Shown: one piece after another, positions 61,167 through 64,000 of the stretch
Layout of the letters: every line of letters starts with the position of its first letter
Position numbering within the stretch: the stretch's first letter is position 1
DNA from: Acinetobacter bouvetii DSM 14964 = CIP 107468
GTDB taxonomy: Bacteria; Pseudomonadota; Gammaproteobacteria; Pseudomonadales; Moraxellaceae
Length of the DNA: 64,000 nucleotides
Direction of reading: 5' to 3'
NCBI RefSeq assembly: GCF_000368865.1
Contig: NZ_KB849727.1
Span: forward strand, 362,176 to 426,175
The notes under the pieces: generated by a model
What the model was told of the DNA's origin: nothing
Database searches by the model: none
The model's input: only the letters and a program-made list of their open reading frames with translations
Translations under genes and position numbers: made by a program

Positions 61167-62369
61167 TTATTTCTTGCTTGCCTTATAAGCAGATAAAGCA
61201 GCTACAGCAATCGCTGACAATACAATGCCCGGCGCGCTGGCAGCCAAAATACCGGTTGTACCCAAACCTAAGGCCAAAATTTTACCCGTCAGCAATGGAC
61301 CAGTCATTGCGCCTAATCGTCCCAGAGAAATTGCACTGCCCACGCCTGTCACCTTGCCTGCATTTGAGTAAAATATTGGTGAAATGCCATACAGAATCGA
61401 TTGACCGCCTGTAGAGAAAATACCGCCTATTAAGCCCGCAAAGATCAAGAGTAGAATCGATTTGGTCGTAAAGAGAATCAATACTGCAATAAATAGACCT
61501 GTATAGATAATCACCGCCATTTGCCACAACTTTAAGCGATCCAGCAAGTAACCTAAGCCAAGCGTACCAATCACTGCACCCACCTGGAAAATCAGCATAA
61601 TCATAAATGCTTGCGGTTTTTCTAAGCCTTGCTCCATAAGCAAGTTTGGCAGCCAGCTGATTAAAATGTAGTTCACCATCAGCGTAAAGAAGAAGCTCAC
61701 CCACAATAGCAATGTGTATTTATAGCGATTTTCAGCAAACAATACTTGCGCCATTGGCGGGACAGCCTCCACGGGCGCTGATTCTGCTTTTTCCGTGCGC
61801 TTATCTTTTAAGATAATAGCCATGAACGGAATCAACAGCAATGGGGTTAAACCGCCAATCAAAAACAGCGTATGCCATGAAATATCTTTAAAGATAATAG
61901 CCAAGCCTGCAACAAAGATTGCACCGACCGGCAAGCCGCAGTACATCAAGCTATTAAGTTTACCCCGGTTTGCTTCTGTTGCCTCATCACCAACCACTGA
62001 AATCATGGTTGGCATTGCAGCCCCCAAACCCAAGCCTGTAAAGAAGCGCGCTGCATATAAAACTTCAACACTTGGCGCCAATGCCGTAATTGACATAAAG
62101 AGGCCAAAAATTGCAATTGATAACATCAGGACTTTTTTCTGTCCTAAATAATCCGCTACACGGCCGCCAAAAAATGCGCCGAATAACATACCAAATACGC
62201 CCAGACTGAACACATAGCCCATCTGAACTTGATCTAATGAAAATGTCGCCGCGATTCCCTTTGCCGCGATTCCAGGCGCTTGAAGATCAAAACCTTCAAA
62301 GAATGCGACCCAGAAACACAAAAATACCGTTAAAAATTTTTGCATTTTTCCAGTTTGTACTTGTGCCAT
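61167..62369 (-). CDS. MFS transporter, aromatic acid:H+ symporter (MhpT-like)
   Basis: 400-residue inner-membrane transporter with 12 predicted helices. The opening (VAFFEGFDLQAPGIAAKGIA) and the loop 2-3 signature GGRVADYLGQKKVLMLSIAI place it in the aromatic acid/H+ symporter group, closest in memory to the 3-(3-hydroxyphenyl)propionate carrier MhpT (E. coli 403 aa). The central loop is short and charged (KDKRTEKAESAPVEAVPP). No aromatic catabolic genes lie nearby in the window, so the substrate is not fixed. The ATG at 62369 has a GGAG-like stretch upstream (GGACGGAGTTTAATC). Confidence 0.87.
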   Translation of the reverse strand: MAQVQTGKMQKFLTVFLCFWVAFFEGFDLQAPGIAAKGIAATFSLDQVQMGYVFSLGVFGMLFGAFFGGRVADYLGQKKVLMLSIAIFGLFMSITALAPSVEVLYAARFFTGLGLGAAMPTMISVVGDEATEANRGKLNSLMYCGLPVGAIFVAGLAIIFKDISWHTLFLIGGLTPLLLIPFMAIILKDKRTEKAESAPVEAVPPMAQVLFAENRYKYTLLLWVSFFFTLMVNYILISWLPNLLMEQGLEKPQAFMIMLIFQVGAVIGTLGLGYLLDRLKLWQMAVIIYTGLFIAVLILFTTKSILLLIFAGLIGGIFSTGGQSILYGISPIFYSNAGKVTGVGSAISLGRLGAMTGPLLTGKILALGLGTTGILAASAPGIVLSAIAVAALSAYKASKK

Positions 62370-62736
62370 GATTAAACTCCGTCCATAGTAAACAAATTAC
62401 CCCGCAGTAACTTGCCTCACTATTTTCAGTTCAATCTTTTAAAATAAATACCACTACAATGGTCGGGTTTAATGTGCTGTACATCAAAGAAAACCATTCA
62501 AATTAGACATAAAAGATTAAACAAATAAACATCACAGATCTTAATATTATTTATTATATATAATTTTCAAATACTTATGTTTTCAGTAGTTATTTATGAT
62601 CAAACCATAGTCAAAAGCAATGGTTTAAAATTAAACGATAAAAAAACCCTCATTACGCGGGCTTTTCATTAAAAATCCTATCAAATAAATTTAGTTCATT
62701 TATAATAAAAATATATTTTTTAACAACTTATAAACA
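62370..62736. other. AT-rich junction between core genes and the SIR2 gene
   Basis: No gene. It contains a seven-base inverted repeat AAACCAT / ATGGTTT (62602-62626), an imperfect hairpin with CCC/GGG pairing and flanking A/T runs (62640-62667) that looks like an eroded terminator, and TATAAT at 62701-62706 as a possible -10 for the SIR2 gene without a good -35. No SD sequence is visible before the SIR2 ATG. Confidence 0.5.
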
Positions 62737-64000
62737 ATGAGCTTTACAGTAAAAGATATTGCAAAAACCTTAAGAGATAGCAAAAAACAAGGAACTCCAG
62801 TAATTGTTTTTACTGGTGCTGGTTGCTCAAAAAGCGCAGGCATGCCTTTAGCAAGCGAACTAATTACTGAAATCAATAAAAAATTCAAAGGTAATCTCAA
62901 AAGTTTAACTGAAGAACAAAGGAAAGATTACGGTGTGTGTATGAGTAAGCTCACACCTCATGAGCAAAAAATATTAATTGAGAAACACATTTCTAAAGCA
63001 AAGATTAATTGGGCTCATATTGCTTTAGCCAGCCTGCTAAAAAATGGTTATTTAGGAAAGGTGCTTACGTTTAATTTCGATAATATTTTGAATCGTGCAT
63101 GTAGCTTAGATAACTTCTACCCTCCTACCTATGACTTAAAGGTTCTTTCAGAAGAGTATTTCTCTGCTATCCCGACTCAATCCATTGTTCACCTACATGG
63201 ACAATGGAGTGGGTTTCAACTAGCCAATTCTGATATTGATACTGAAGCGCAAGCCAACAAATTAAAAAACTATATTAAAACCACTATTAATACATCACCA
63301 ACTCTTTTTATTGGTTACAGTGGTGGTGCTGATGCCTTCTTCAAACTTGTAGAAGAAGGTTTCATTGGCCAACATCGTTTATTCTGGGTTGATTACGCTA
63401 AAAAACCCAATATGAATGTCAAAAAATTTATTGATGCAAATCCCAATCACAGAAATTTCATTTCAGAGCAAGATGCTGACCAATTTTTATTAGAATTAGC
63501 AATGGAGTTAAAATGCTTTCCTACAAATATGTTTGAAGACCCTATTAAACATATGCAAGAAGTTTTCGAGCTTATTAATGATTTCCCTCTTTCAGCAAAA
63601 AATGATCAAGTTGATATTCTTCAAGATACAAAAAGAACCCTAGAGATCACAAATCAAGCTAAACCTGCAATTGCTACAATCAAATTAGCTGAATTACTAC
63701 ATTATAAAAAATTTGATACTATTATTAATCAAACAACTTCATTAAATGTAGAGCATGAACCAGTCAGTAAAATATTAGCTTCCGCACATCTTGGCAAAGC
63801 CTTATCCTTTCTAACAAAGGATGACAATCAATTTGAGAAATATTTTAATAAAGCTACAGAAATAAACCCTAAATTTTATCAAGCTTATGCTCAAGTAGCT
63901 ATTACATTAACTCGTACACCAAAAGATTCTTTTTTAGAACAATCCATTTTTTATTATGAGAAATGTTTAACAATAAAACCTAATTTCAAGGATGATTTTT
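62737..64000 (+). CDS. SIR2-domain protein with TPR-like C-terminal region (3' end outside window)
   Basis: 421 codons are visible from the ATG at 62737 and the frame is open at the window end. Residues about 20-260 form a SIR2-like NAD-binding domain: VIVFTGAGCSKSAGMP (25-37 region), VLTFNFDNILNRA with Asn113 and Asp115, SIVHLHGQWSG with His152/His154, and LFIGYSGGADAFFKLVE. The Asn/His positions resemble the catalytic pair of the Thoeris NADase ThsA (Asn112, His152). From about residue 310 the protein is helical, with a TPR-like repeat (KYFNKATEINPKFYQAYAQV, then YYEKCLTIKPNF). Base composition is near 32% GC in sampled lines, below the neighbours, suggesting acquisition. Role in phage defence by NAD depletion is inferred. 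Confidence 0.85.
   Translation, partial: MSFTVKDIAKTLRDSKKQGTPVIVFTGAGCSKSAGMPLASELITEINKKFKGNLKSLTEEQRKDYGVCMSKLTPHEQKILIEKHISKAKINWAHIALASLLKNGYLGKVLTFNFDNILNRACSLDNFYPPTYDLKVLSEEYFSAIPTQSIVHLHGQWSGFQLANSDIDTEAQANKLKNYIKTTINTSPTLFIGYSGGADAFFKLVEEGFIGQHRLFWVDYAKKPNMNVKKFIDANPNHRNFISEQDADQFLLELAMELKCFPTNMFEDPIKHMQEVFELINDFPLSAKNDQVDILQDTKRTLEITNQAKPAIATIKLAELLHYKKFDTIINQTTSLNVEHEPVSKILASAHLGKALSFLTKDDNQFEKYFNKATEINPKFYQAYAQVAITLTRTPKDSFLEQSIFYYEKCLTIKPNFKDDF

What the first reader, a model, noticed from the sequence alone, without database searches (positions are those of the whole stretch)
62737..64000. SIR2 NADase-like domain fused to a TPR-like helical region at a composition break
The sequence shows a SIR2 fold with the GAG, TFNFDN and VHLHG motifs and a helical repeat region after it. 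SIR2 domains in Thoeris ThsA, DSR and SIR2-HerA kill infected cells by NAD depletion after a sensor part is triggered. Here the sensor part would be the TPR region, and the gene begins right after core genes in DNA of about 32% GC. A single-protein or multi-gene defence system that is not one of the common named types is possible. The gene is cut, so the full architecture and the partners are unseen.
Basis: partly seen in the sequence, partly recalled or inferred. Interest (0 to 1): 0.75.

Follow-up and report, generated by a model that had tools for sequence, protein, structure and literature searches.

The report
SIR2 immune gene with shuffled sensor
In several Acinetobacter species one gene beside mnmG joins a SIR2 enzyme head, nearly unchanged among close relatives, to a string of repeats that can differ almost completely between them; it is likely a phage-sensing immune receptor predicted to shut infected cells down by destroying their NAD.

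Summary
Observation confirmed. The ORF at 62737 is a SIR2_2 domain followed by TPR helices, in 32% GC DNA (window 44%). In the assembly it is a lone gene between an MFS gene and mnmG; its 3' end carries the family's C-terminal cap, but 1018 bases between are withheld. NAD-site residues are invariant; the HG-motif histidine is H154, not H152. Fold matches are SPARSA, DSR2 and ThsA SIR2 NADases; no STAND, SLOG, HerA or Argonaute was found. New points: (1) 10 of 11 fetched Acinetobacter copies sit at the mnmG 3' end; the eleventh is truncated there. (2) Two SIR2 heads (45-48% identical) occupy that site. (3) In six head-B proteins heads are 86-97% identical, caps 47-85%, arrays 24-90% (median 33%); for one pair DNA identity falls to about 50% in the array between flanks of 95%. 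(4) The window gene is a mosaic: head 97% to a relative whose cap is 58%; cap 90% to a strain whose head is 45%. (5) A relative sits in a prophage between integrase and CI repressor. Most likely a single-protein NADase immune receptor with a recombining TPR sensor; function untested, and Rhizobiaceae copies show no such array variation.

The parts
62737..64000 (+). SIR2-TPR gene, 5' part (421 codons; runs off the window, continues at G000:C3:426176)
   Evidence: ORF and Pfam; continuation
62737..63522 (+). SIR2_2 head, about residues 1-262, predicted NAD+ hydrolase
62812..62829 (+). TGAGCS, NAD-binding GAG motif (residues 26-31)
   Evidence: G27-A28-G29 in 63 of 64 aligned rows, one gap
63067..63084 (+). 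TFNFDN with N113 and D115
   Evidence: N113 and D115 in 64 of 64 rows
63196..63201 (+). H154-G155, HG motif
   Evidence: 64 of 64 rows; aligned with the HG of SPARSA SIR2
63523..63822 (+). helical linker, about residues 263-362
   Evidence: model secondary structure
63823..64000 (+). start of the TPR array, residues 363-421
   Evidence: TPR hits and helices
62636..62666 (.). left copy of a hairpin like the mnmG terminator; a second copy lies after the gene's stop (L002:9458-9482, outside the window). The 13 empty sites shown have one
   Evidence: alignments to empty sites, read by eye; the pattern scanner did not report either copy
62667..62736 (+). upstream region shared, with the first codons, with the head-B strain ANC 3903
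   Evidence: alignments
61167..62369 (-). MFS transporter (named by eye), left neighbour of the site
   Evidence: ORF; next to mnmG in 16 of 30 loci

Best explanation
A single-gene SIR2-TPR protein, lodged at the 3' end of mnmG in some Acinetobacter, most likely acts as an immune receptor: its TPR array would bind a phage protein, and the SIR2 head is then predicted to hydrolyse NAD+ and stop the infected cell. Shown: the head-array-cap order, invariant NAD-site residues, the predicted NADase-type fold, the shared site, two head types at it, a near-constant head against a strongly variable array in head-B proteins, and mosaic identity patterns. Inferred: NAD+ hydrolysis, phage triggering, activation by assembly as in DSR2 or ThsA, and homologous recombination through flanks and repeats as the cause of the mosaics.
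For: SIR2_2 domain and motifs; no CxxC pair in the visible 421 residues, cysteines of the first 300 only at 30, 68, 122, 260, so no sign of a deacetylase-type zinc module. Foldseek top hits are anti-phage NADases: SPARSA E 2.4e-9, DSR2 7.7e-9, ThsA 6.6e-8, HAM-SIR2 2.4e-7, with TM-scores by query length of only 0.39-0.51 because the head alone fits. TPR-S sensor family PF20308, 42.4 bits against 27.6, in relative P0008. Prophage copy L057 lies between a phage integrase and a CI repressor, beside an Apea-like HEPN gene. Variable array: ANC 4173 v ANC 4910 head 97%, array 26%, cap 80% at equal array length; DNA 89-100% over the first 300 codons, 46-57% in codons 351-550, 84% in the last bin, mnmG 95.2%, upstream 95.6%. 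Mosaic of the window gene. Mismatches between similar repeat units gather at TPR ligand positions, 36% against 17% expected, 0 of 100,000 random position sets as high (positions recalled). Two other copies are broken, L041 and G064.
Against: No direct evidence of NADase activity or defence. In 15 of 19 neighbourhoods outside Acinetobacter I recognised no mobile or defence gene (by eye). Rhizobiaceae copies L043, L044, L053 have arrays about as conserved as their heads (89-91% v 91-95%), so array variation is not general; ANC 4178 and G097 also share much of an array (90% gapped; 74% over 151 residues by BLAST). pN/pS within arrays is below 1 (0.47 at ligand positions, 0.30 elsewhere) and synonymous change is also higher at the ligand positions (0.65 v 0.38): no positive selection shown. 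AU tests do not reject the non-mosaic clades: p 0.054 for caps, 0.067 for mnmG. The window copy may be frameshifted in the withheld part.
Confidence: 0.6

Rival explanations
1. The SIR2-TPR protein guards against plasmids or other incoming DNA, or against non-self cells, rather than phages; the variable array would recognise plasmid or partner proteins, as in SPARSA-like or fungal incompatibility systems.
For: The best PADLOC scores are to SIR2 proteins of Argonaute systems and the top fold hit is SPARSA. Repeat arrays of high internal conservation occur in fungal non-self receptors (listing and abstract starts only).
Against: Prophage carriage between integrase and CI fits anti-phage use. I recognised no Argonaute gene by eye in the neighbourhoods read.
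Confidence: 0.17
2. A housekeeping or stress regulator: the SIR2 head modifies or deacylates proteins chosen by the TPR array, with no immune role.
For: Lone gene at a shared site also in Psychrobacter (2 loci) and Rhizobiaceae (3 loci); weak NCBIfam similarity to CobB, 32.6 bits against a cut-off of 320.
Against: No zinc-type cysteine pair; patchy, 9 of 149; low GC; head and array not inherited as one block.
Confidence: 0.13
3. A decaying foreign gene with relaxed constraint on the array; variation is neutral and the window copy a pseudogene.
For: Frame offset across the withheld stretch; broken copies in L041 and G064.
Against: Array DNA identity near 50% between flanks of 95% (ANC 4173 v ANC 4910) is hard to get by neutral point change alone; the six head-B proteins compared keep an open frame through the array to a recognisable cap.
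Confidence: 0.1

Closest known systems
SPARSA (short Argonaute with SIR2-APAZ)
   Different: No Argonaute gene beside it; a TPR array follows the head in the full-length relative.
DSR2 / DSR1 defence-associated sirtuins
   Same: Single-protein SIR2 NADase with a C-terminal helical sensor (fold hits; function recalled and from listings).
   Different: Dsr1 NCBIfam 13.3 bits against a cut-off of 1400; here TPR units of 41 residues with an end cap; DSR chains are about 900-1000 residues.
Avs5 (SIR2-STAND-repeat)
   Same: SIR2 effector whose Asn and Asp are needed for defence (PMC12931631, passages).
   Different: No STAND ATPase hit in the full-length relative.
Fungal NLRs with repeats of high internal conservation
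   Same: Effector plus repeat array of high internal conservation in non-self recognition (PMC4986451 and PMC12222747: listing and abstract starts only; constant effector with recombining repeats is recalled).
   Different: Bacterial, SIR2 head, no NACHT/STAND hit.
SIR2_2 / SIRim proteins with TPR named in the FAM118 tree legend
   Same: SIR2_2 with TPR is named there among extra domains (PMC12700824, passages).
   Different: That legend gives a label only; I saw no function, site or array variation in the passages.

Membership tests
SIR2_2 (Pfam PF13289) | score over the curated cut-off | tested here: met
   33.8 bits against 24.5
SIR2_2 (Pfam PF13289) | NAD-site residues (GAG, N and D of the NFD motif, HG) | tested here: met
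   N113, D115, H154, G155 in 64 of 64 rows; GAG in 63 of 64, one gap
TPR-S sensor (PF20308) | score over the curated cut-off | tested here: inconclusive
   met by the relative P0008, 42.4 against 27.6; prophage relative L057 scores 24.5, below it; the window's own array is mostly withheld and its 421 residues gave no such hit
TPR end-of-group (NF047558) | score over the curated cut-off | tested here: not met
   30.7 (P0008) and 29.9 (L057) against 32; near miss at the cap
Thoeris | ThsB partner and SLOG domain | tested here: not met
   no partner gene beside it; no SLOG hit in P0008 at E 0.01
SIR2-HerA | adjacent HerA ATPase | tested here: not met
   neighbours are the MFS gene and mnmG, named by eye
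SPARSA | short Argonaute gene beside it | tested here: not met
   none among the ORFs around the gene
SPARSA | APAZ region after the SIR2 head | tested here: inconclusive
   PADLOC SIR2-Ago hits end by residue 382 in the window part and by 272 in P0008; TPR hits follow; APAZ was not searched for by itself
Avs5 | STAND NTPase domain | tested here: not met
   no such Pfam hit in P0008 at E 0.01
DSR1 | NCBIfam Dsr1 cut-off | tested here: not met
   13.3 against 1400
PDC-S65 (PADLOC candidate) | match along the model | tested here: not met
   model positions 126-291 of 592 only, E 2e-9
anti-phage defence protein | protects cells from phage | not testable with these tools
   needs a bench test

The most novel reading that the evidence does not exclude
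A STAND-free bacterial immune receptor that diversifies like fungal and plant receptors: at one chromosomal slot, recombination swaps SIR2 killer heads and TPR sensor arrays between strains, so each species carries its own recognition specificity on a near-constant NADase.
Probability: 0.35. Interest if true: 0.75.

Novelty: new variant of a known kind. Interest (0 to 1): 0.52.

Why it matters
If right, it is a natural series of single-gene receptors with nearly the same effector and different sensors at one site. That would make a hard question directly testable: which part of a repeat sensor decides which phage protein is seen. It would also give a bacterial, ATPase-free counterpart to repeat-bearing receptors of fungi.

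Tried and rejected
Multi-gene defence system: rejected, no partner gene recognised in the Acinetobacter loci read. Diversity-generating retroelement as the source of variation: no reverse transcriptase family PF00078 in the own genome, 0 of 1, while 3 of 14 control genomes rang; the relatives were not searched. Positive selection on ligand positions: pN/pS below 1, not shown. Formal rejection of non-mosaic trees: AU p 0.054 and 0.067, not rejected. Array variation as a family-wide rule: rejected by the Rhizobiaceae trio. Plasmid carriage: 2 weak records of 72,556. Pattern scans for promoters and terminators gave nothing above chance in the two stretches tried. Structure families not listed are not excluded by it. 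Papers: the term SIR2-TPR gave 0 papers and a five-term search 0; some searches listed papers, of which I read passages of six and found no description of this family in them. The scan of genome contigs used two peptide patterns, so its 32 loci are a lower bound.

Full report
What is in the window. The ORF at 62737 (+) starts with ATG and runs off the window's end after 421 codons. It scores as SIR2_2 and TPR. GC is 32.3% against 44.3% for the rest of the window up to 62369, and none of 306 equal-sized windows there is as low. ARAGORN finds no tRNA in the window or in the 40 kb fetched around the gene's right side.

What lies beyond. The window is G000:C3:362176-426175. To the right the gene continues; 1018 bases (L002:8177-9194) are withheld. 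The visible 3' end codes a cap whose stop lies 43 bases before the mnmG stop codon. If the withheld run is exact in length, the 5' and 3' parts are one frame apart; whether that is a frameshift in the strain, an assembly error among repeats or an inexact mask I cannot tell. mnmG follows on the other strand and an MFS gene stands on the left (names by eye). So it is a lone gene.

Array and cap. In 38 relatives searched with a profile built from the units of P0002, 37 have 1 to 9 ungapped units of 41 residues; L042 has none ungapped. Psychrobacter and Aeromonas proteins have 43-residue units. Units one period apart can be over 90% identical. Between units of one protein that are at least 65% identical (147 pairs in 21 proteins; pairs are not independent and a few proteins are near-duplicates, for example L028 and P0054), 36% of mismatches fall on seven positions recalled as TPR ligand contacts, 17% expected. 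The positions were mapped after the counts were seen. pN/pS stays below 1 at both classes of position (33 pairs with DNA).

Site. Of 149 genus genomes, 20 have any match and 9 a match at E 1e-70 or better. Those 9 plus two loci from named contigs (L035, L041) make the 11 Acinetobacter copies whose loci I read; other Acinetobacter proteins have no locus here. In 10 of 11 the stop lies 40 to 47 bases from the mnmG stop (for the window copy the stop is that of the visible cap, and L041 has its frame broken). In the eleventh, G064, transposase-like ORFs stand where the 3' part should be and mnmG is not seen. Of 60 genomes searched with MnmG, 59 have it; of these, 3 carry SIR2-TPR beside it (and for the rest). 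In 16 of the 30 with loci the MFS gene is next to mnmG at about 310-400 bp, and one more is seen (L103, under 300 bp); in three (L091, L092, L093) other ORFs stand between mnmG and MFS. The others have other neighbours or a contig end. Alignment to empty sites shows the window gene between two copies of a terminator-like hairpin, of which the 13 empty sites printed have one (by eye); ANC 3903 shows the same left copy, and the other 8 of 10 occupied loci do not within the 130 bases printed.

Mosaics. Two head types, 45-48% identical, occupy the site; they are separate clades with support 100/100. Among six head-B proteins (15 pairs): head 86-97% (median 89), residues 301-370 54-91% (73), array 24-90% (33), cap 47-85% (62). 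Left out of these: ANC 3903, also head B, whose array is 43 residues long and whose cap is diverged (heads 80-84% to the six), the broken L041 and the truncated G064. ANC 4173 and ANC 4910 have arrays of equal length, 26% identical, with heads 97%; DNA identity per 50 codons runs 100, 100, 98, 93, 92, 89, 85, then 53, 46, 53, 57, then 84, with mnmG 95.2% and upstream 95.6%. Import of another array is the simplest cause (inference). Results the other way: ANC 4178 and G097 share much of an array (90% gapped; 74% over 151 residues), the closest array found for ANC 4173 among the proteins held is only about 31% identical, so no donor is identified, and in the Rhizobiaceae trio array and head are about equally conserved. 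The window gene has a head 97% identical to that of Acinetobacter sp. 226, whose cap is 58%; its cap is 90% identical to that of ANC 4178, whose head is 45%; its upstream DNA and first codons align with head-B strain ANC 3903, while the match to head-A A. piscicola begins at the ATG. In the cap tree own and ANC 4178 pair with support 95/94, but the AU test does not reject a clade of own with the three head-A Acinetobacter-type caps (p 0.054), nor own plus A. piscicola in mnmG (p 0.067).

Defence evidence. Among 74 pattern stretches in viral contigs one relative was confirmed, L057: phage integrase, Apea-like HEPN gene, SIR2-TPR, CI repressor. P2-like phages are known to carry anti-phage genes in hotspots (PMC9122126, passages). 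More distant SIR2 homologues (23.5-27.9% identity) stand near integrase genes in 3 of 50,697 phage records; one of the three, a pleolipovirus, also has TPR hits. Against: of the 25 loci outside Acinetobacter I listed the neighbours of 19, L057 included; hints of mobile or defence genes were seen in four (L026, L033, L051, L057), of which L033 rests on reading by eye and L026 and L051 on partial or weak PADLOC matches. In the other 15 I recognised none; some are short contigs.

Verdict. A SIR2 NADase-type receptor of a known kind, in a STAND-free TPR form, with a head and sensor that appear to recombine at a fixed site in Acinetobacter. Defence is likely, not shown.

Noticed in passing
L127-L135 (nine Acinetobacter loci): A second SIR2 family (about 30% identical, 489-547 residues where not broken) lies upstream of the genes read by eye as glyQ-glyS in 9 of 9 loci fetched; in L133 it is interrupted by transposase-like ORFs. 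PADLOC PDC-S65 scores 3.2e-24 on the L127 copy.
   Followed up: partly
L090, L091, L092 (mnmG 3' flank): The same slot beside mnmG holds ADP-ribosylglycohydrolase genes in two genomes and a Sel1-repeat protein in another, so it takes accessory genes other than SIR2-TPR.
   Followed up: partly
L030/L031 (Psychrobacter) and L043/L044/L053 (Rhizobiaceae): SIR2-TPR genes of these groups also stand alone, each group at a shared site; the L031 copy has 1014 residues with a long array of nearly identical 43-residue units.
   Followed up: partly
L002:19716-20000 and L003:1-822: About 8 kb to the right of mnmG an ORF of lower GC (0.36 in the last 500 bases of L002) crosses the join of the two loci; not examined.
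   Followed up: no
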